Shown piece after piece: positions 52,904-64,000 of a stretch of 64,000 nt of DNA (position 1 is the stretch's first letter; each line of letters starts with the position of its first letter). This DNA is from Clostridiales bacterium. GTDB lineage: Bacteria > Bacillota > Clostridia > Oscillospirales > Ruminococcaceae. The notes under the pieces are model-generated. The model saw nothing but the letters and a program-made list of their open reading frames with translations, was not told the DNA's origin and made no database searches. The stretch spans positions 30,973-94,972 of the forward strand of contig QAMM01000016.1 of the NCBI GenBank assembly GCA_003150405.1. Reading direction: 5' to 3'. The position numbers and the translations under genes are program-made.

Positions 52904-52972
52904 AAGAAAACTCCAATTAGTTACGACGATTAAAAGAAAGGGGGCCAGTTATTAGCCCCCTTTTGCGGACAG

Positions 52973-54820
52973 CTATTTATCAGCCTTCCGACGGATAATG
53001 AGCAAAGATGCGAGCGCTGCCCCTGCTGCAAGTATGCTCAGAGCCAAGAGATTTGAAACATTAGAGTCACCGGTTTGTGGTGCTGCATTGCCACTGCTGG
53101 AGTTACCAGTATTGTTTGTATTTGGTAGTTCTACAGAACCAGTTGCCGGAATGCTTTCGGTTTTTAAAACTTTGCCGCAAATGGTGCAGGTATATGTTTT
53201 TTCACCATTTTCGGTCTCCGTTGCCGGTTGAGTGACAACACCTTCGTCGCTTATGTGAGCGGCTGCACCAGTGTGGTCGCCGCAGACAGTGCATTCATGC
53301 CAGTGGGATCCATCGTCAGAGGTCCATGCATCTGCATAATTATGACCGAGAGCAGGCCGTTCAATTTTGGTGATCTCGGTAATGCCTTCATCGCTGAAAT
53401 ATTTGCCGCAACCGGCACAATACCAGTAGGCAACATTACCTTTTTCGGTGCAGCTGGGAGCTTTGGCTTCTGTTTTCTGGAGTTGGTGAATATGAGTTAC
53501 AACATCCGTGTTTTCATCCACTGTTTTGTCGTTGACAGTTACATTTCCGCCGCCAGGATTGGTGACAGTGACGCCGTCAACCGGGATGGAGAACGAAACG
53601 TCGCCCTTTAAAACTTCAATTTGCGAACCGGTTGGTGCAGAAGCAAGTCCTTGACCAACTTCTTCGCCTGTACCGACTAGAAAAACCTTATCCTTGCCGA
53701 CTTCAGTATAACCGACTGCGGTACGATCAGCGGTGATATATTCGACCGGGGAAGTGGTGTAGGAACCACCTGTGATGACCGTTTTGGATGGAGTATCACC
53801 GGGTTCATCCGAAGTATAGGCTTCTTTAATGTTTGGGGCGTCAAAATTACCGCCATTAATCTGGTTGTCTGAACCATCTCTCAAAGTGTGAAAAATTGCT
53901 TTTCCGGCGGTTACATTTACACTGTTTTCTCCCTGCGGTGTTATGGTCGTGTGGCGGGTCTGGAAAGCATAGGTTTGAACATCAAATGTACCACCGGTAA
54001 CGGTAATTGGCGCGGAATCCGCCTCAATTCCTACGGCGTTTGAGGTAATAGAGCCTCCGGAAATGACAATGGGCTGGTCGCCGTCTTTGGGAGTGCCGGT
54101 GTTAACCATTATGGCAGAGGACGAACTATACGTACTTTCCTGCATGACGCGGCCGCCTTCCATAGAGAGGGATGCATTCGAGGCATTACCGCCATTTATT
54201 TGAAGCGCCTTGCCGCCGTCAATCGTATTTTTAATTTCACCATCACCAGACAAGGTCAAACTGCCGCCCTTTTTGCCAGATTCACTGGTGCCATTTACAA
54301 AAGCCGCATACCCGGAACTCCCACTGTTCACAATGGTTCCGCCGGAAATAGAAGCAATGCTGTTTCCGTTTACATGCAGAGCATAGCCCATCTTTGTCGT
54401 ATTTTCCAGCGTTCCGCCTGTCATTGTAAAGGAGCCGCCGTTTACCTGTACCAGCGTTTTCATACTTCCGGCGCCAGCATTGGTGATTTTGCCGCCGCCC
54501 TTGTTGTCTTCAATGGTTAAACCGCCGGTTACCTGCACAAAAAATGCTTCTCCGCTGGCTGCTGTAATAGTATGGCCGTTTAAATCCAGCACCAGGGAAG
54601 ATTTTGGGGTTTCTGGACGGGAAGAACCCCAACTGCCAATGGTAACCTCTTGGGATAATGTAACATTCGTTGTCAACCGGTAGACGCCGCTTGACGGCAA
54701 AGATGTGCCACTTGCCCAGTCAGTGTACTCCTGTCCACCTGCCAAGACCGTCATGTTGCTCAGGGAAATCAGCAGCACAAGACTGAGAAGCAGGGGCAGA
54801 AAACGTTTGAATGCCTTCAT
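52973..54820 (-). CDS. Sortase-type surface protein with beta-helix-like repeats
   Basis: A 615-residue secreted protein. The signal peptide (FLPLLLSLVLLISLSNMTVL, then AGG) is followed by about 330 residues of short Gly/Thr/Asn-rich repeats (SMEGGR, ISGGSITSNAVGI, VTGGTFDVQ), typical for right-handed beta-helix surface proteins. Near residues 450-550 two C-x-x-C pairs per module occur (YCAGCGKYF, CTVCGDH, CTICGKV). The C-terminus has APQTGDSN, a hydrophobic helix and RRKADK, a sortase-type signal. GGAGG lies 8 nt upstream. It follows the HD-GYP gene by 43 bp and so lies downstream of the invertible promoter. Ligand unknown. Confidence 0.9.
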   Translation of the reverse strand: MKAFKRFLPLLLSLVLLISLSNMTVLAGGQEYTDWASGTSLPSSGVYRLTTNVTLSQEVTIGSWGSSRPETPKSSLVLDLNGHTITAASGEAFFVQVTGGLTIEDNKGGGKITNAGAGSMKTLVQVNGGSFTMTGGTLENTTKMGYALHVNGNSIASISGGTIVNSGSSGYAAFVNGTSESGKKGGSLTLSGDGEIKNTIDGGKALQINGGNASNASLSMEGGRVMQESTYSSSSAIMVNTGTPKDGDQPIVISGGSITSNAVGIEADSAPITVTGGTFDVQTYAFQTRHTTITPQGENSVNVTAGKAIFHTLRDGSDNQINGGNFDAPNIKEAYTSDEPGDTPSKTVITGGSYTTSPVEYITADRTAVGYTEVGKDKVFLVGTGEEVGQGLASAPTGSQIEVLKGDVSFSIPVDGVTVTNPGGGNVTVNDKTVDENTDVVTHIHQLQKTEAKAPSCTEKGNVAYWYCAGCGKYFSDEGITEITKIERPALGHNYADAWTSDDGSHWHECTVCGDHTGAAAHISDEGVVTQPATETENGEKTYTCTICGKVLKTESIPATGSVELPNTNNTGNSSSGNAAPQTGDSNVSNLLALSILAAGAALASLLIIRRKADK

Positions 54821-54863: not shown

Positions 54864-55502
54864 TTACAGAAGTTGATATGAGTGCTGACGCAAGATAGAG
54901 CAAAAACGCTCAGCCAACATAGGATCAAACTGAGTACCTGCGCCGTTCTGAATTTCCAGCAAAGCATCCTGCACAGAGATTCCACGGTGGTAGGGCCGGT
55001 TGGACGTCATGGCATCAAAGGCGTCAGCAATTCCGACCATTCGAGCGAAATAGGGAATTGTTTTACCGCTCAATCCGAAGGGATAGCCGCTTCCATCCCA
55101 GTGTTCATGATGATACAGACAGCATTGCGCCAATGTATCACGCAGGTTTGGGATACCATTGTCACCGCCGGGAAAAGGCAGTTTACCAAGAATGAGATAT
55201 GCCCCGAGAATGGTATGAGACTGAGCAAGTTTTCGTTCCTCTTGGTTAAGAGCACCGGTATAGCTCCAAATGCTGTTTGCAATGCCGGATTTTCCAATGT
55301 CGTGGTAAAAACCAAACCCCAAAAAGTCTGAAAGACTCCAGCTTTGTGCGTATAAAGGAAATTCAACAGATGATTCGGCTAAAACTTCACGTGCCAGAAG
55401 TTGGGTGTATATCCCAACCATTCGACTGTGCTGTTGTAAAAAAAGAGGAAGCGAAGCAAAGTAAGAGTTAAGCTCTTGGAGGCATATATTTTGCAGCAAC
55501 AC
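54864..55502 (-). CDS. HD-GYP domain protein, predicted cyclic-di-GMP phosphodiesterase
   Basis: A 212-residue protein consisting almost only of the HD-GYP domain. The metal motif HDIGK lies at residues 67-71, HHEHWDGSGYPFG at about 131-143 with the GYP triplet, and ADAFDAMTSNRPYHRG follows; all canonical residues are present. No sensor or receiver domain is attached. The GTG at 55502 is chosen because GGGAAGGAG ends 7 nt upstream; the ATG at 55538 lies inside the inverted repeat and has no such site. The gene is the first one read from the invertible promoter and precedes the surface-protein gene by 43 bp. Confidence 0.9.
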   Translation of the reverse strand: MLLQNICLQELNSYFASLPLFLQQHSRMVGIYTQLLAREVLAESSVEFPLYAQSWSLSDFLGFGFYHDIGKSGIANSIWSYTGALNQEERKLAQSHTILGAYLILGKLPFPGGDNGIPNLRDTLAQCCLYHHEHWDGSGYPFGLSGKTIPYFARMVGIADAFDAMTSNRPYHRGISVQDALLEIQNGAGTQFDPMLAERFCSILRQHSYQLL

Positions 55503-55530
55503 AGCTTCGCTCCTTCCCAGTGAAAAGGAC

Positions 55531-55556
55531 AACAACATAATGGTGATTCTGTTGTT
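55531..55556. repeat. Left 26-bp inverted repeat (recombinase site)
   Basis: It is composed of arm AACAACATAA, core TGGTGA and arm TTCTGTTGTT. The two arms are inverted copies with 9 of 10 matches. It is the exact reverse complement of 55782-55807. Confidence 0.97.
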
Positions 55557-55781
55557 ATTCTTTTTTTGTTTATAGATTTATACACCATTTACAAATTTAT
55601 ACTAGCACGAAACTGCCTGTACTGCAAGAGTATTTAAAGGTCTAACCTTAAAAATACGCATGAAAAATACGCTGGGGCTCAATGAAAAGGAGTGCCAGTT
55701 TATTTGCTGTGCGCATTTTTTTGAATTCTGTAATTGTATGTAGGCACGTTTTAGCTTCTTTTTATATTTGTTGAATTTTTC
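55557..55781. mobile_element. Invertible promoter segment, about 225 bp between the repeats
   Basis: The segment is AT-rich and has no coding frame. It carries one good promoter (55599-55627) that points left, toward the HD-GYP gene, in the given orientation. An AAGG/CCTT short palindrome lies at 55637-55649. Flanking inverted repeats, adjacent tyrosine recombinase and enclosed promoter are the features of a DNA inversion switch. Inversion itself has not been shown here. Confidence 0.88.
55599..55627 (-). promoter_or_regulatory. Promoter inside the invertible segment
   Basis: On the minus strand TTGCAG (55622-55627) and TAGTAT (55599-55604) are spaced by 17 nt. Initiation near 55592 would produce a leader of about 80 nt through the left repeat to the GGGAAGGAG site (55510-55518) of the HD-GYP gene. 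Confidence 0.8.
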
Positions 55782-55807
55782 AACAACAGAATCACCATTA
55801 TGTTGTT
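55782..55807. repeat. Right 26-bp inverted repeat (recombinase site)
   Basis: It is composed of arm AACAACAGAA, core TCACCA and arm TTATGTTGTT. It overlaps the last codons and stop of the recombinase gene (minus strand ACA ACA TAA), which lie outside the core and so are unchanged by inversion. Confidence 0.97.
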
Positions 55808-56625
55808 AGAGTGAGTTGCATTTGTTCCAGACGGCTGATGTGCTGTCGGCCGGTTTCCATGATATAAATGCGGGTGGTGTTGATACTGCTGTGGCCGAGC
55901 AGGTCCGCCAGTTTGGCAATGTCATGCTCAAGACTGTAAAAGGTGCGCGCAAACAGGTGCCGGAGGTTGTGTGGATAAACCTTGCTGGGAGAAACACCAG
56001 CTTTCTGGCACAGAGCTTTCATGTCGCGCCAGATATTGCTCCTGTTAAGGGGTTTTCCGGTTCTGCTGACAAACACCGGGCCGGTTTGAACGCCGGTTTT
56101 TCTAATATAAGCAATAAGCAGTTTTTGAAGCGGTGCAGGGATAAAAATGACCCGTGTTTTATTTTTGCAGTTTACCACTGCTTTGCCGCAGCGGACTGCT
56201 TCCACAGAAATATAGTTTAGTTCACTTACTCGAATACCAGTACAACAGATGGTTTGAATGATCAGTGAAATCCGGGAGTTTTTCGCGGCTTTCAGCAGGC
56301 GCTGGTACTCTTGTTTGCAGAGTTCTTTTTCTTCAGCACAAAAAATTTGCCGCTGAATTTTCAGCAGTTTTACGCAGTATCTAGGGTACCCTATAAAGCG
56401 CAGAAAACTGTTTAGTGCAATCAACATAGAGTTGACGCTGACGGCGGCGTAGCATTTGCAAAGCATGGACTTGTACTGAAGAACCAGCGCTTTATTGAGC
56501 GTCTGATTTGCGGCGAAACGGATAAAACGCCGAACGTCGCGCAGATATTTTTCAATGGTAGCCGGGCTTTTTTCCTCGTCGGCTAAATATTGCGCGAATC
56601 GGCGTACCTCTTTTTCTTGAAACAT
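55798..56625 (-). CDS. Tyrosine recombinase, probable DNA invertase of the adjacent switch
   Basis: A 275-residue XerC/D-type site-specific recombinase. The N-terminal SAM-like domain (about 1-90) is followed by the catalytic domain with Arg132 (GIRVSEL), Lys near 156, His219 and Arg222 (HNLRH), His245 (LGHSS) and the nucleophile Tyr254 (RIYI). All catalytic residues are present. GGAGGG lies upstream of the ATG. The gene ends inside the right repeat, so it and the repeats form one unit. It may also serve a phage or element, but no other such genes are nearby. Confidence 0.93.
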   Translation of the reverse strand: MFQEKEVRRFAQYLADEEKSPATIEKYLRDVRRFIRFAANQTLNKALVLQYKSMLCKCYAAVSVNSMLIALNSFLRFIGYPRYCVKLLKIQRQIFCAEEKELCKQEYQRLLKAAKNSRISLIIQTICCTGIRVSELNYISVEAVRCGKAVVNCKNKTRVIFIPAPLQKLLIAYIRKTGVQTGPVFVSRTGKPLNRSNIWRDMKALCQKAGVSPSKVYPHNLRHLFARTFYSLEHDIAKLADLLGHSSINTTRIYIMETGRQHISRLEQMQLTLTT

Positions 56626-57081
56626 GGCATTCCCTCCAGCGTTGTTTGTATGGATAGTATGCCGCTTTATTATTGAATGTTCTACAGGAAAATTATGGGA
56701 AATAATCGGAGACAGATAGAAACTTCAATTTTCTGCATGAATTGAACCCACACAAAGAACAAACCGCCTCTTTTCGCAAAGGGCGGTTTGTTCTTTGTGT
56801 GTCAAGGAGGTTTGGTACAGCCGTCAAAGTAAAAAGCAGACGCTCGCTCTGTTGAAATTCGGGGAAATTCGCTTTTTGGCTGCACAAAAGGCTCATATTC
56901 CGCTTGAACGAGGATGGCAGCGTTAATAAAATGCGGAAAACTGCGGTTGTACGAAGCGCTCAATCCATTTTGAAGTGAAGCCGAAAAAGTGTCTGCCGGA
57001 AGAAAAGAAGCCGCTCTTTTTTCTAGTGGTGGTAAGAGAACATTTAGCCGCTGATTTCTATTCGTAATGAATGCTGTGGGC
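56626..57081. other. Gap between recombinase and UvrA-like gene
   Basis: About 456 bp with no supported gene; it holds the long hairpin at 56749-56801. Confidence 0.55.
56749..56801. terminator. 20-bp perfect hairpin
   Basis: CACACAAAGAACAAACCGCC and GGCGGTTTGTTCTTTGTGTG are exact inverse complements around 13 nt. There is no long T run on either side. It is probably a terminator of the UvrA-like gene (minus strand) although it lies 280 bp past that stop. Confidence 0.7.
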
Positions 57082-59559
57082 TTACAAATAATGTCCGGTA
57101 CAGCTTTGAGGATTGTTTTTTATTTCTTCCGGGGTACCGGCTGCAACAACCCTGCCACCCTCTTCACCACCGCCAGGCCCCAGATCGATGACGTAATCGG
57201 CGTTGCGGATGACGTCCAGGTCATGTTCAATGACAAGGACGGTTGCGCCGTTTTCAACAAGTGTCTGAAAAATGCCGAGCAGGGTTTGCACATCCAGCGG
57301 GTGAAGCCCTATGGTTGGTTCGTCAAAAACAAACACGGAGGCCGATTGGCTTTTTCCCATTTCGCTTGCCAGCTTTAGGCGCTGTGCTTCTCCGCCGGAC
57401 AGCCTGGGTGTTTCCTCGCCGAGAGTCAGGTACCCCAGGCCAAGGCGCTGTAAAATCTCCAGCCGCTGGCGCACAAGCTTTAGGTCACAGCAGGCGTGCA
57501 GTGCCGTGTCGATATCCATCGCCATCAGTTCAGGCAGAGAATACACATTGCCTACGCTATTTTGGTATTGGATCCGGTCAGCCTCTTTGGAATACCGGGA
57601 GCCGCGGCAGTCCGGACAAGGAACTTCGACATCCGGCAGGAACTGCACGTCAAGACTGATGACGCCCGTTCCATCGCATACAGGACAGCGCAGCTTTCCG
57701 GTGTTGTAAGAAAAGTCCCCAGCCTTGAGACCAAGCTGTTTTGCCTGCTGCGTTTTTGCAAACAGTTTACGCAGTTCATCGTGTATATTTGCATAGGTTG
57801 CAACCGTAGAGCGGACGTTGATGCCGATTGGTGTAGCGTCAATTAATTGAACCCGTTCAATCCCATCCGCATCCAGCGCCTTGACATGCGTTGGAAGTTT
57901 TTTACCGGAGGTTGCAGCCTCCAGCGCGGGAACCAGGCTTTCCAGAATCAAGGTGGTTTTACCGGAACCGGACACACCGGTTATCGCCGTCAGTTTTCCT
58001 TTCGGAATTGTAACAGTGAGCGGTTTGACTGTATGAAGGGCGTCTGTGGAGAGCCGGATTTGCCCAAGCGAAAAAATTGCGGAGGTATCCGGGTGCTTTC
58101 CTGTTGTGATTTGGGAATTGCCGAAGAGGAACGGCCCTATGAGGGAATGAGCGTTTTGTGAAAGATCATTGGGGGTTCCCTGCGCAATGACAGTTCCGCC
58201 GTTTGCCCCTGCCTGCGGCCCTAATTCAAGGAGCCAGTCGGCCTTGGATAAAACCTGTGTATCGTGATCCACCAATAAGACCGAGTTGCCGTCTGCAATT
58301 AAATCCCGCATGACCGCCTCCAGCCCCTGAATGTTGGAGGGGTGCAGGCCGATAGACGGTTCATCCAGTACATACAGAACTCCAGTTGTTCGGTTGCGCA
58401 CGGCACGGGCGAGCTGCATCCGCTGCCGTTCCCCGGTGGAAAGGGTAGACGCCGCCCGGTCGAGGCTGAGGTAACCAAGCCCCAGCTCCATAAGACGCTT
58501 GGCAATGGTCTGAAAGGATTCGCAAATGCTTTCCGCCATTGGGCGCATCTCTCCCGGCAGGAAGCTTGGCACGCTGGACACCCAACTCGTCAGCTTGAAA
58601 AGGGACATGCTGCAGGCTTCATCCAGAGAAATTCCGCGCAGTTTTGGCTGCCTTGCCGCTGCAGACAGACGGGTGCCGCCACATTCGGGACAGAGATCCT
58701 CGCGTAAAAATTTTTCAACGCGCTTCATGCCTTTTTCATCCTTGACCTTCGCCAGCGCATTTTCAACGGTGTAGACCGCGTTGTAATAGGTGAAATCCAG
58801 CTCTCCCGCTTGGTTGGAATTTTTGGCCTTGTATAAAATATGTTTCTTTTCAGCGGGGCCGTGGAACACGATTTCCCGCTCCTGTTCGGTTAAATCACGG
58901 AATGGCAGATTAGTGCGGACACCCATTTCACGGCAGACGTCAACCATCAACGACCACATGAGCGAATTCCATGGGGCGACTGCACCCTGTTCGATTGTAA
59001 GTGATTCATCTGGGACAAGGGTGGTTTCGTCCACCGTACGGACCTTTCCCGTCCCGCTGCAGGTACGGCAGGCGCCCTGACTGTTAAAGGCCAGCTCCTC
59101 TGCCGACGGCGCGTAGAAGTGTGCGCCGCACTCCGGGCAGACAAGCTCTTTGTCGGCTGCAACGGCGAGGGTTGGCTTTTGAAGATGCCCGTTTGGACAG
59201 AGATGATTTGCAAGCCTGGAAAACATTAGCCGAAGGCTGTTTAACAGCTCGGTTCCGGTGCCGAATGTACTGCGGATGCCCGGAACACTAGGCCGCTGAT
59301 GCAGGGCAAGTGCGGCGGGAACGTACAGCACTTCATCCACCTGGGCTTTGGCGGCCTGGCTCATTCGTCGTCTTGTATAGGTGGAAAGTGCGTCTAGGTA
59401 GCGCCGGGAACCCTCTGCATATAAGACACCCAGGGCAAGTGAGGATTTTCCGGAACCGGATACCCCGGCGACACCGACAATTTTGTTGAGCGGAATATCA
59501 ACATCAATGTTTTTTAGGTTGTGTACCCGTGCACCCCGTACCTTGATTTTATCGATCAT
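57082..59559 (-). CDS. UvrA-like ABC ATPase (UvrA2-type)
   Basis: An 825-residue duplicated ABC ATPase. Walker A motifs are GVSGSGKSS near residue 33 and GVSGSGKTT near 520; signature regions are [14 protein letters not shown] and [14 protein letters not shown]; Walker B regions are [13 protein letters not shown] and [13 protein letters not shown]. Zinc-module cysteines are [24 protein letters not shown] and CPDCRG. The length is about 110 less than repair UvrA, which suggests a UvrA2/drug-resistance-type paralog lacking the full UvrB-binding region. AGGTGA precedes the start. The gene is monocistronic. Confidence 0.93.
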
Positions 59560-60772: not shown

Positions 60773-63700
60773 CTACTTAGTTATTCCTTTCTTTTTGCGG
60801 TAGGCAGACAGTACTACACCTGCACCGGCGCTGACAAAGATGACAGCAATCCAGAAAATTACGCTGCTTTCACCGGTTACGGGAACGTCCGGTTTTGTGG
60901 TTTCCGCCTGAACCGTGAATTCACCGGAAGCTTCACCGTCGGCAAAGACAATATCAATTCGATGTTCGCCGACCGACAAGGTGTTCAGATAAGAGGCTTT
61001 CAGTGTGACAATGGTACTTCCGGATTTTGCCTCATAGCATTGTGCGTCCAAATCCTTGCCGTCAATGCGAACGCCCTCAAACTTACGGAGCGGCCCGTTC
61101 GCAGCAAATGTCAAGCCTTTGTCAGATCCATGCATCCAGCTGCACCCGCTGCCCTCCGTAATACGGTAGGCGTTCAACGCCTTAACCAACGCGTCCAATT
61201 TTGCCTTGGCATCTTCGCTGATAAAGCTCTTTTCATAATCGCTCAGAGCGTCATAAGCGGCTTTGGCATCGGCAACTGCCTGAATATGCTCCTCATTATC
61301 GATTGCAATCTCGTCAACAGAAGGAAGGGCGTTGATTTGTTCTTCCACCGCTTCCGCCCGGCTGAGATCAGGGTTGACTGTGATTGGAAGCATTGCGGTT
61401 TTGGTTACACCGTTTTCGGTATAGGAAATGGTGACAGAGGTATCGTCAGTTGTCAGAGCGTCGTCTGGTGAAATGGTATAGCCTGTTATGGTTTTTTGGT
61501 TCCCGTTTGCGTACACTGCGTTTACCACCAAACCGGTTGGGTCAAAGCGTTCACCGGCGGTGTAGGCTGTTTTATCCGGCGCAGCCGTAATATCAATCGA
61601 CGAAAGGACGCTTCCCTTTGGCAGGAAGGTGCCGAGATCGCCGAGGTCAATGGCATAGCTGTCCTGAAGTTTTTCGTACTCGCCGTCAAAATAATCATCC
61701 AGATAAGAATGCCCTAAAATATACCGGTCAGGGTCGGCTGCGCCGTAGTAACCGGCATTTGCATTACCCTGCGTGTCAAACAGAACGTAGCTGCCCTGCC
61801 ATCCGGAACCGGATACGCCCCAGCTAATAATGTGGTCTATATATGGGGCAAACCGGGTGAACAGCTTATACATCAGTGCATACTGGTAACCGAGCGCATC
61901 AGACTGCCTGATATTGAGCGCTGCAGGGGCGGTCGCACCGCCTCCGGGAGCATCCGTTAACAGCTTTAAGTCAAACTCGGAGAAGGAAATCCCGGAAAGG
62001 AGTCCTTCGTCGATTAAAGAGGCGTAAAGTGCCATTGCGTACTGATTGTCGCTTGCAAGGGTTTCGTTGACCGAATCGTGTCCCTGGAAACCGACGACTT
62101 CAATCAGCGGCCTTCCGTCATACAATGGGTCGGACTCCCACGCGGTATTCAGGTCGCGGACCATGTTATAAATAGTGCGCGCCTTGCTGCGGGTTGCAGT
62201 GCCATAATCGTTGTAGGTGAGTTTGGGAGGATTGTCAACAACATAGGCATCGATGCTGCCTGCGTTGTCGTGTCCGTCCAGTTTCATATACTCCGGAAGG
62301 CTGTCGTAGTTCGCTTTGTAAGCTTCTGCCATCTGAGCATTCGGGACGGCAATGTGTGCATATTTAAAGAGCAGATAAATATAATGCTCGGTGATATCGC
62401 CGGTAATGTCGTCATCTGACATGGCAACCAGCCAGTTGGTGTGCTTGAGGCTGTTTCTCCAGTTGTTGGCATCCTGCAGAATCAGTTCGCTGTGCCGGCT
62501 TTCGTGAACCTCTTCGTTCAGAACATCCCACGAATGGAAGGGGATGATTCCGCGGTCTTCACTGGAGCCGTATTTCGCGTCTGTTGTCATGAAATGGCGC
62601 ATGACATACATAATGTGGTTGTACTGAACCCTTCTGGCGCTGTCTTTGTCGACCTTCACCGTATTGGTAACGCCGTTGCCCAGACCATAGAATTCGGCCG
62701 TGCCGGTGTACCCGGAAGGAAGATGTTCTGGGATGATCTGCCGCATCCATGCGGGGGCCTGGTTATACCATGCCAGGACATGGCCATGCATTTTATATTC
62801 GCCTGGTTCACCGGAATCCCGGATGGCCAAATAGGAATTGGTTGGAAAACGATATTCCGCCAGTCCAGGTTCGGCGTTTGCGCCGCTTAACGGAGCGCCG
62901 TCAACGCTTTTCAGCCAATTCGGCCCGGTGGGATGGGTACTGTCCGCTTTCAGGTTGTTGCCGTCAACAAAAATTTCGTAGTGCCGGGCTCTGGTACCAG
63001 TCACGGAACCGGTTCCAATAGAGCCGACCATAAAAAGACCGTTTTCTGGGTTGTAAATTTCTTTTAATGGGGTGACTTCACTCTGGTTTTCGTTATTGAC
63101 AACCTCAGGAAGCGGAACACCGTCCGGATCAGGGGCTGTTATTTTAATATCGGAAACCAGAAGCATGCCGCTCTCTGCGGGACGTGCATTTTCACCGTGC
63201 AGCTCAAGAATGAGCTTGGAAGCAGTACCAGTTGTGGCCACAATGCTGTGGTGGGTTTTTAGCCAGGTTTCGTTGTCCCAGTAGCCCTGCCAGTCCGGGT
63301 TGAGGTTGGTGTAATCATAATCTCTGAGATAGCTGTCGGTTGTGGAACGGCCGCTGTCAGAGCTGATTCTCCACCGCATGTACTTTCCCTGTGCGCTCTT
63401 AGGGTAGTAGACGTCGAATTCAATGGTTGAACCGTCGGGAATTTCTACCGCAGGATCCAGTGCGGACTCAATGCTAATTCCGCCAAAGGTGCTTGTTCCG
63501 TTGTGTTTGTAATTGATTTGGAGTACATCTGCTTTTCCCTCAGAATCTGCGAACGGATAAGCAATCATTTGAACTGTACTGCCGGCAAAATCGGAAGGAA
63601 CACGGTAATCCAAAGGAGCCCTTGTCGTCCAATTATTATCAGGAGCCGTAATTTCGATTGGCACGCTGCCAAGCCCGGGATCGAGCCGAAAATAAGGATC

Positions 63701-64000
63701 GGATCCGTCTGCTTTGACCTTTCCCATGGCTTCTTCAAGGCGGATAATTGCCGTTTCGGCCTCAGACGCAGAGGCGCTACGGGCAAATTCAATCGCATTG
63801 TTCAATTCTTCCAGTTCGCTGGCGTACATCCAGGGGAACGCCTGGTTGACGTCGGAGCCATCATCGGTGTGGCTGACCTGAAGCTGAAATTCTTCGTTTC
63901 CGGTCTTCAAGGCTTCTGCCTGAGCAATCAGTTCATATAGTTCAGCAACCGCTTCACTTTGACTGTTTTCGGCGGCGGAGGCAGTTACCCCCCCCCCCCC
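60773..64000 (-). CDS. Surface-anchored GH10 xylanase, N-terminus beyond the window
   Basis: The frame runs off the right edge; at least 1075 residues are visible. At the N-terminal side VTASAAEN looks like the end of a signal peptide. A beta-sandwich region (about 100-270) is followed by the GH10 barrel with WDVLNEEVHE (acid/base Glu) and ISFSEFDLKLL (nucleophile Glu). Then come a bacterial Ig-like domain (AAPDKTAYTAGERFDPTGL), a helical segment, a further beta domain, and the sortase-type signal DVPVTGESS with hydrophobic helix and RKKKGITK. The codons at the window edge are all GGG, from the 13-nt homopolymer. Confidence 0.92.
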   Translation of the reverse strand, partial: GGGGVTASAAENSQSEAVAELYELIAQAEALKTGNEEFQLQVSHTDDGSDVNQAFPWMYASELEELNNAIEFARSASASEAETAIIRLEEAMGKVKADGSDPYFRLDPGLGSVPIEITAPDNNWTTRAPLDYRVPSDFAGSTVQMIAYPFADSEGKADVLQINYKHNGTSTFGGISIESALDPAVEIPDGSTIEFDVYYPKSAQGKYMRWRISSDSGRSTTDSYLRDYDYTNLNPDWQGYWDNETWLKTHHSIVATTGTASKLILELHGENARPAESGMLLVSDIKITAPDPDGVPLPEVVNNENQSEVTPLKEIYNPENGLFMVGSIGTGSVTGTRARHYEIFVDGNNLKADSTHPTGPNWLKSVDGAPLSGANAEPGLAEYRFPTNSYLAIRDSGEPGEYKMHGHVLAWYNQAPAWMRQIIPEHLPSGYTGTAEFYGLGNGVTNTVKVDKDSARRVQYNHIMYVMRHFMTTDAKYGSSEDRGIIPFHSWDVLNEEVHESRHSELILQDANNWRNSLKHTNWLVAMSDDDITGDITEHYIYLLFKYAHIAVPNAQMAEAYKANYDSLPEYMKLDGHDNAGSIDAYVVDNPPKLTYNDYGTATRSKARTIYNMVRDLNTAWESDPLYDGRPLIEVVGFQGHDSVNETLASDNQYAMALYASLIDEGLLSGISFSEFDLKLLTDAPGGGATAPAALNIRQSDALGYQYALMYKLFTRFAPYIDHIISWGVSGSGWQGSYVLFDTQGNANAGYYGAADPDRYILGHSYLDDYFDGEYEKLQDSYAIDLGDLGTFLPKGSVLSSIDITAAPDKTAYTAGERFDPTGLVVNAVYANGNQKTITGYTISPDDALTTDDTSVTISYTENGVTKTAMLPITVNPDLSRAEAVEEQINALPSVDEIAIDNEEHIQAVADAKAAYDALSDYEKSFISEDAKAKLDALVKALNAYRITEGSGCSWMHGSDKGLTFAANGPLRKFEGVRIDGKDLDAQCYEAKSGSTIVTLKASYLNTLSVGEHRIDIVFADGEASGEFTVQAETTKPDVPVTGESSVIFWIAVIFVSAGAGVVLSAYRKKKGITK
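63988..64000. repeat. Poly-C/poly-G tract at the window end
   Basis: Thirteen consecutive C (G on the coding strand) reach the window edge, so the full length is unknown. They encode Gly codons in the signal-peptide end of the xylanase. Confidence 0.9.

What the first reader, a model, noticed from the sequence alone, without database searches (positions are those of the whole stretch)
55531..55807. Self-contained invertible promoter switch
A perfect 26-bp inverted repeat (55531-55556 and 55782-55807) encloses 225 bp holding a TTGCAG-17-TAGTAT promoter that faces the HD-GYP gene. Each repeat has two 10-bp arms (9/10 matched) around a 6-bp asymmetric core, the layout of a tyrosine-recombinase crossover site, and a complete tyrosine recombinase lies next to it. 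The asymmetric core dictates inversion rather than other outcomes for inverted sites. In the state shown the switch should be ON for the leftward operon.
Basis: partly seen in the sequence, partly recalled or inferred. Interest (0 to 1): 0.95.

Follow-up and report, generated by a model that had tools for sequence, protein, structure and literature searches.

The report
Invertible promoter for a signalling operon
In a bacterium of the gut Clostridia kind, a short DNA segment with a predicted promoter lies between two perfect mirrored repeats next to a recombinase gene, whose enzyme likely flips it and so would switch a predicted signal-degrading enzyme and a predicted surface protein on or off; across many relatives the distance between the two repeats follows the turn of the DNA helix, as expected if the repeats meet and recombine.

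Summary
In detail: a perfect 26-bp inverted repeat with the reported 10-6-10 layout lies between a tyrosine recombinase and an HD-GYP gene and encloses a promoter-like element facing HD-GYP. The reading as an invertible promoter is strongly supported by comparison; inversion itself was not observed. Of 91 recombinase loci with enough downstream sequence (window included) 86 carry two such sites in inverted orientation, and 77 of 98 in a second set. The central core bases vary freely between loci, yet the two copies in a locus are reverse complements in 78 of 79. The predicted promoter sits at a characteristic place and faces either the gene or the recombinase; where homologous segments could be compared, their relative orientation agreed with the promoter call in 25 of 25 pairs, 11 of them inverted. 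The nearest orthologue reads like the opposite state, and contigs tend to break inside the switch. Site spacing follows the 10.5-bp helical repeat, a prediction noted beforehand and met on loci fetched afterwards (n=46, p 1.5e-6); the window's 251 bp fits. Corrections: HD-GYP likely starts at GTG 55502, outside the repeat, and the operon includes a predicted sortase-anchored protein. The kind of system is known; private cores with helical spacing look new.

The parts
55531..55556 (+). Predicted crossover site next to the HD-GYP gene: arm 55531-55540, core TGGTGA 55541-55546, arm 55547-55556
   Evidence: family layout
55782..55807 (-). Predicted crossover site next to the recombinase gene, exact inverted copy; core 55792-55797; contains the recombinase stop codon
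   Evidence: core-to-core distance 251 bp
55557..55781 (.). 225-bp segment between the repeats, predicted to invert
   Evidence: relatives with homologous segments in both orientations; orthologue P0122 junction
55599..55627 (-). Predicted promoter TTGCAG-17-(TGC)TAGTAT facing HD-GYP (predicted ON state)
   Evidence: 52 bp from core edge, family cluster 52-56; weak by consensus
55510..55515 (-). Shine-Dalgarno-like AAGGAG ahead of GTG 55502
   Evidence: sequence; P0121 start
54864..55502 (-). HD-GYP protein (212 aa from GTG; the ORF from ATG 55538 is 224 aa), predicted c-di-GMP phosphodiesterase
52973..54820 (-). 615-aa predicted sortase-anchored surface protein, 43 bp after HD-GYP, predicted second gene of the operon
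   Evidence: LPXTG_anchor 19.5 bits against cut-off 15.9; Pfam Gram_pos_anchor 13.8 against 20, not met
52937..52963 (-). Terminator-like hairpin (11 pairs) just after the surface-protein gene
   Evidence: 10 terminator-like sites found in the stretch, 5.7 expected from shuffles
55798..56625 (-). Tyrosine recombinase (275 aa), transcribed toward the switch, predicted inverting enzyme
   Evidence: association with paired sites; NCBIfam cut-offs not met
56749..56801 (.). Perfect 20-bp hairpin arms between the UvrA-like gene and the recombinase, possible terminator isolating the cassette
   Evidence: termination inferred, not listed by the terminator scan

Best explanation
This is a segment with a predicted promoter between two perfect inverted repeats beside a tyrosine recombinase gene, and it is predicted to be flipped by that recombinase so that an HD-GYP protein (a predicted c-di-GMP phosphodiesterase) and a predicted surface protein would be made in one orientation and not in the other. 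Shown by the sequence: the repeats, the promoter-like element, the gene order and the terminator-like hairpin. Shown by comparison: the site pair accompanies this recombinase family, its core is matched within a locus and free between loci, the promoter-like element takes either of two mirror positions, and the two sites keep a near-integral number of helical turns between them. Inferred: recombinase molecules bind both sites, the DNA between them loops so that both cores face the same way, strands exchange across the 6-bp core, and because the cores are asymmetric and inverted the product is an inversion. In the window the promoter faces HD-GYP (predicted ON). In the opposite state it would face the 3' end of the recombinase gene, leave the operon without this promoter, and would transcribe antisense to the recombinase.
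For: Inverted pair in 86 of 91 loci with 500 bp or more downstream, window included (112 non-duplicate loci in all); shuffles 2 of 1720, control stretches in the same loci 0 of 214. Second set 77 of 98, of which 66 of 84 fetched after the prediction. Cores ignored when calling sites: first and last site carry reverse-complement cores in 78 of 79; the four central core columns carry 0.04-0.16 bits, the six-base arms 1.39-2.00. Best promoter 30-60 bp from the core edge that it faces in 73 of 86 (shuffles 64 of 430) and 58 of 77. Homologous segments (matches of 80 bases or more): orientation agrees with the promoter calls in 25 of 25 callable pairs, 11 of them inverted, one further pair ambiguous. 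Orthologue P0122: N-terminal extension matches the flipped junction at 6 of 13 residues (score 20), the window's junction at 0 of 13 (-16). Contig ends within 330 bp after the recombinase: 13 of 80 loci against 1.65 expected, p 2e-8. Core-to-core distance: R at 10.5 bp 0.54, n=72; prediction noted; loci fetched afterwards n=46, R 0.49, phase 9.37 against 9.35 bp, p 1.5e-6; control distance R 0.13, n=141.
Against: No reads, transcripts or second assembly of this species were at hand. The window's promoter is weak by consensus and only 0.8 ahead of the best opposite-facing candidate, so it counts as ambiguous by my margin. No inverted pair was found in 5 of 91 loci (L037, L065, L067, L069, L128) and in 21 of 98 of the second set; L128 lies in one of the two genomes, of 22 compared, whose UvrA-like gene is closest to the window's, though the other, L126, has a pair. 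One of 55 within-genome pairs of switches shares a core. Contig breaks can come from repeats, and breaks are also raised from 330 to 1000 bp (9 more). P0122's DNA was not seen. HD-GYP activity is predicted only; a metal-ligand glutamate recalled from solved HD-GYPs appears to be phenylalanine (F33).
Confidence: 0.9

Rival explanations
1. The two sites are paired operators for a DNA-looping regulator, and the segment never inverts.
For: Helical phasing and a characteristic promoter position are also expected of a looping repressor.
Against: A looping operator does not explain cores free between loci but matched in 78 of 79 loci, the recombinase association, or homologous segments found inverted (11 pairs).
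Confidence: 0.04
2. The segment inverts, but the main switch is not the promoter: read-through from the recombinase promoter, a 5'-leader effect or antisense RNA sets HD-GYP expression.
For: The recombinase is transcribed toward the operon and no terminator-like site was found in 55300-56000; the orthologue's frame is longer (P0122); the window's promoter is weak.
Against: Extended -10 promoter at a characteristic place in 73 of 86 and 58 of 77 segments; first downstream ORF in line with it in 77 of 82 loci that have one of 100 aa or more.
Confidence: 0.08
3. It is a relic: integrase and leftover attachment sites of a mobile element, no longer inverting.
For: Relatives occur on contigs of the viral collection; 26 of 189 searched loci lack a detectable pair.
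Against: Open recombinase frame with the recalled catalytic residues, 26 of 26 identical arms, spacing on the helical comb, orthologue reading like the other orientation.
Confidence: 0.03

Closest known systems
E. coli fim switch (fimS with FimB and FimE)
   Same: Short invertible promoter segment between inverted repeats, moved by recombinases FimB and FimE (PMC2845655, passages: 314 bp, 9-bp repeats). That the enzymes are tyrosine recombinases encoded beside the switch, and the gene order, are recalled.
   Different: Two recombinases there; here one adjacent recombinase, longer sites with private cores, and a signalling enzyme as first target.
C. difficile pdcB (Cdi2) and pdcC switches
   Same: Invertible promoter ahead of a c-di-GMP phosphodiesterase gene in a gut member of the Clostridia (PMC9286219, passages; review PMC11868660, passages).
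   Different: EAL, not HD-GYP; imperfect 19-bp repeats, 174-bp element 840 bp upstream of the gene; recombinase for pdcB not identified in that paper.
Inverton group 139 with invertase group 35, gut Clostridia (PMC11892184)
   Same: Tyrosine-type recombinase near invertons, 32 of 33 from Clostridia; orientation shifts reported. From the coordinates printed for two of them I get repeat start-to-start distances of 231 and 241 bp, like this family's (passages). Probably overlaps this family.
   Different: The motif is not printed in the passages that I read and the supplement could not be read, so identity is untested; those passages mention neither helical spacing nor private cores.
Desulfitobacterium dehalogenans inversion near an HD-type phosphodiesterase (PMC5903667)
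   Same: Inversion signature next to an HD-type phosphodiesterase gene in Clostridia (section 13 read).
   Different: Site, recombinase and promoter of that case are not described in the parts read.
Hin inversion system (PMC3798978)
   Same: DNA inversion for which helical phasing experiments exist (passages).
   Different: Serine recombinase; the phasing concerns the Fis enhancer, not the distance between the two crossover sites.

Membership tests
Invertible promoter switch (inverton) | Inverted repeats bounding a segment with a promoter that can face a gene | tested here: met
   promoter by sequence only
Invertible promoter switch (inverton) | Both orientations occur | tested here: inconclusive
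   Relatives in both orientations and orthologue junction; not seen within one strain
Invertible promoter switch (inverton) | Orientation changes expression | not testable with these tools
   No transcript data
Tyrosine recombinase | Catalytic R, K, H, R, H, Y and the integrase family | tested here: met
   residue roles recalled
XerC, XerD, XerA or the tyrosine-type DNA invertase models of NCBIfam | Score at or above the curated cut-off | tested here: not met
   XerA 146.9 against 220, XerD 108.3 against 329.6, XerC 108.2 against 335.15, invertase models 28.9 against 221 and 28.1 against 222
HD-GYP phosphodiesterase | HD and HHExxDGxGYP signatures with metal ligands | tested here: met
   ligand roles recalled, one recalled ligand (a glutamate) seems replaced by F33
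HD-GYP phosphodiesterase | Hydrolyses c-di-GMP | not testable with these tools
   No assay
Inverton group 139 / invertase group 35 | Shared repeat motif and invertase cluster | not tested
   Motif not in the passages read; supplement not readable

The most novel reading that the evidence does not exclude
A portable one-recombinase, one-switch cassette in gut Clostridia: each copy carries a private code in its core that keeps sister switches from crossing over with one another, and the two sites are locked to the same face of the helix so that a tight loop of roughly 18 to 35 turns can bring them together. In the OFF state the promoter would fire back into its own recombinase gene and so quiet the enzyme, which would explain why most assemblies show OFF.
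Probability: 0.4. Interest if true: 0.82.

Novelty: new variant of a known kind. Interest (0 to 1): 0.7.

Why it matters
If true, it ties c-di-GMP turnover and a surface protein to a heritable coin-flip in a gut commensal, with a recombinase of its own. At family level it gives a natural experiment on recombination geometry: 125 switches with site distances of 150 to 300 bp show the helical repeat, so models of short DNA loops and recombinase synapsis can be tested from sequence. It also gives a simple rule (recombinase 3' end, ACATAA-N6-TTATGT pair, extended -10 promoter some 41-56 bp from the core) for finding and reading the state of such switches in metagenomes.

Tried and rejected
HD-GYP relatives: in 394 genomes of one order 52 matched, the best at 47% identity, and none of the 30 loci fetched (L096-L125) holds the recombinase; the one genome of a near genus had no match, which by the tool's own note shows nothing; in 378 genomes of another family 245 matched, but only the Cuneatibacter copy already seen as L005 stood out (E 1e-97, next 3e-49). 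The exact 26-base site is absent from viral contigs and the region from plasmids by near search. Viral-collection relatives at 33-36% identity (L201-L205, 5 of 5) show no paired repeats, which marks an edge of the family. Rejected: HD-GYP start inside the repeat. Rejected as proof: the promoter scan alone. The second promoter prediction was only half met: position confirmed, but the gap between the 41-46 and 52-56 clusters (2 of 86 in the first set) was partly filled in the second (10 of 77). Phasing of the promoter distance by itself was not significant after thinning (n=14, p 0.13). On helical spacing, three literature searches gave two papers: Hin and its enhancer (PMC3798978, passages) and a phage paper (PMC13418256, listing only); neither is about the site distance as far as seen. 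That is no proof of absence.

Full report
WHAT IS THERE. The repeat is exact, 26 of 26 bases with 225 bp between the arms, and unique in the window (100 shuffles, none). The layout is 10-6-10 with asymmetric core TGGTGA. To the right, on the minus strand, a 275-aa tyrosine recombinase runs toward the switch and its stop codon lies in the right repeat. To the left, on the minus strand, is an HD-GYP gene. Its likely start is GTG 55502, with AAGGAG seven bases upstream (sequence; P0121 begins there), so the left repeat lies in the leader. Forty-three bases after it follows a 615-aa protein that passes NCBIfam's LPXTG_anchor cut-off (19.5 against 15.9) but not Pfam's (13.8 against 20), then a terminator-like hairpin with 11 pairs. 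The unit is thus predicted to be a two-gene operon behind the switch.

THE FAMILY. With 31 further non-duplicate loci from whole genomes and the window, one search examined 112. Of these, 91 have at least 500 bp after the recombinase, and 86 of the 91, the window among them, have two ACATAA-N6/7-TTATGT sites with reverse-complement cores. Shuffled sequence gave 2 of 1720, other stretches of the same loci 0 of 214. The five without a pair are L037, L065, L067, L069 and L128. None of the cores is palindromic. Of the 21 loci with less downstream sequence, 20 show no pair and one a direct copy. Homologues of the recombinase were found in 80 of 396 genomes of one family (E up to 1e-60) and in 63 of 378 of another (E up to 1e-70), both drawn from larger groups.

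CORES. When sites are called by their arms alone, the first and last site have reverse-complement cores in 78 of 79 loci; the exception, L144, is a direct copy. The four central core columns carry 0.04 to 0.16 bits, while the six-base arms carry 1.39 to 2.00. So the letters between the arms vary freely between loci but agree between the two copies of a locus, which is what strand exchange would require. Switches within one genome carry different cores in 54 of 55 pairs (24 genomes; the exception is L331/L340), but between genomes sharing is also rare (28 of 3950), so avoidance of cross-talk is only suggested.

PROMOTER AND STATE. A weighted search placed the best promoter 30 to 60 bp from the core edge that it faces in 73 of 86 segments, against 64 of 430 shuffles. 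Of the 73, 59 have an extended -10 and 69 a 17-bp spacer; the score rewards both, so these two counts are biased upward. It faces the controlled gene in 16, the recombinase in 60, and is ambiguous in 10, the window among the last by my margin (10.2 against 9.4). In the second set the counts are 6, 55 and 16 of 77. The window's promoter is 52 bp from its core edge, inside the cluster at 52-56. Against it: the -10 matches 4 of 6, the simple scanner missed it, and a 9-of-12 site faces the other way, at an unusual distance of 23.

SIGNS OF INVERSION. Among segments of the first 80 loci and the window, 26 pairs match over 80 bases or more. In the 25 where both promoters could be called, the relative orientation of the match agrees with the promoter calls in 25: 14 in the same state and matching directly, 11 in opposite states and matching inverted, such as L029 and L041 (79% over 187 bases) and L014 with L007 and L053. 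The pairs share members, so they are not independent, and some segments also hold shorter matches in the other sense (L007 and L014, 67 bases; L007 and L053, 94 bases). Contigs of the 80 loci end within 330 bp after the recombinase 13 times against 1.65 expected (p 2e-8), as when an assembler meets both orientations; repeats can also do this, and 9 more end between 330 and 1000 bp.

HELICAL SPACING. Core-to-core distances below 300 bp in the first set (n=72, window included) clustered with a period near 10.5 bp (R 0.54; after thinning below 70% identity n=39, R 0.53). I noted the comb as a prediction and then fetched 100 regions from another family. After removal of duplicates 96 remain, 84 with 500 bp or more, and 66 gave a pair with a caller that does not use the arm sequence (it reproduces 75 of 85 of the first set). 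For the 46 distances below 300 bp, R is 0.49 with phase 9.37 bp against 9.35, p 1.5e-6; without L339, which is probably off-centre, p 5e-7; restricted to loci below 70% identity to the first set and to each other, n=29, R 0.44, p 5e-4. Eleven further calls come from regions fetched before the prediction (eight of them below 300 bp, R 0.61); with these the set is n=54, R 0.51, p 8e-8. All together 101 of 125 distances lie within 2 bp of the comb (59.5 expected); 31 distances from 300 to 380 bp give R 0.43; recombinase-to-site distances, as control, give R 0.13 (n=141); thinned below 60% identity, n=38, R 0.54. The window's 251 bp fits. A near-integral number of turns puts both cores on the same face, which should matter only if the two sites meet over a short loop.

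TARGETS. The first downstream ORF of 100 aa or more is on the recombinase's strand in 77 of 82 loci that have one (a laxer rule gave 81 of 85). For 61 of these loci (the second gene in six), the most frequent Pfam families are TetR (7), LRR_5 (5), List_Bact repeats (4), InlB-like repeats (4) and signal peptidase S26 (4); HD-GYP occurs in 2 (the window, and L005 of Cuneatibacter, 52% identical), and a GGDEF-EAL protein stands behind the switch at L030.

WHAT IS KNOWN. fim in E. coli (PMC2845655, passages), the C. difficile pdcB and pdcC switches for EAL phosphodiesterases (PMC9286219, passages), a Desulfitobacterium inversion near an HD-type phosphodiesterase (PMC5903667, section 13) and inverton group 139 with invertase group 35 in gut Clostridia (PMC11892184, passages) make the kind well known. 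The last probably includes this family; two of its invertons have printed coordinates from which I get 231 and 241 bp, near the comb, if their cores are central. Three searches found nothing on the helical spacing of crossover sites in such switches (Hin enhancer phasing is another matter). I therefore call this a new variant of a known kind: a cassette with its own recombinase, private cores and helically spaced sites, here on an HD-GYP and surface-protein operon.

Noticed in passing
L284 (G413:C19:7700-10200): Two recombinase copies with equal match scores face each other across one switch segment (83-bp perfect repeat); perhaps an assembly chimera made by a population with both orientations.
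   Followed up: partly
L007, L014, L017, L024, L042, L074: Some switches carry an extra nearby copy of a site with the same core, so nested or alternative inversions are possible.
   Followed up: no
window 57082-59559 (-): Short UvrA-like protein (825 aa) below NCBIfam's UvrA cut-offs, 80-82% identical in two of 22 genomes compared and otherwise matched at 35-41%.
   Followed up: partly
window 60773-64000 (-): Large protein with a glycosyl hydrolase family 10 domain (xylanase-like) running off the window's end.
   Followed up: no
L185-L200 (viral contigs): Relatives of the recombinase at 40-62% identity on viral-collection contigs; 11 of 16 show paired inverted repeats after the gene, the other five have under 200 bp there. 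Prophage cargo or host DNA.
   Followed up: partly
G614: Four recombinase matches, each with one in-frame TAG, in one genome: possibly a lineage that reads TAG as an amino acid.
   Followed up: no
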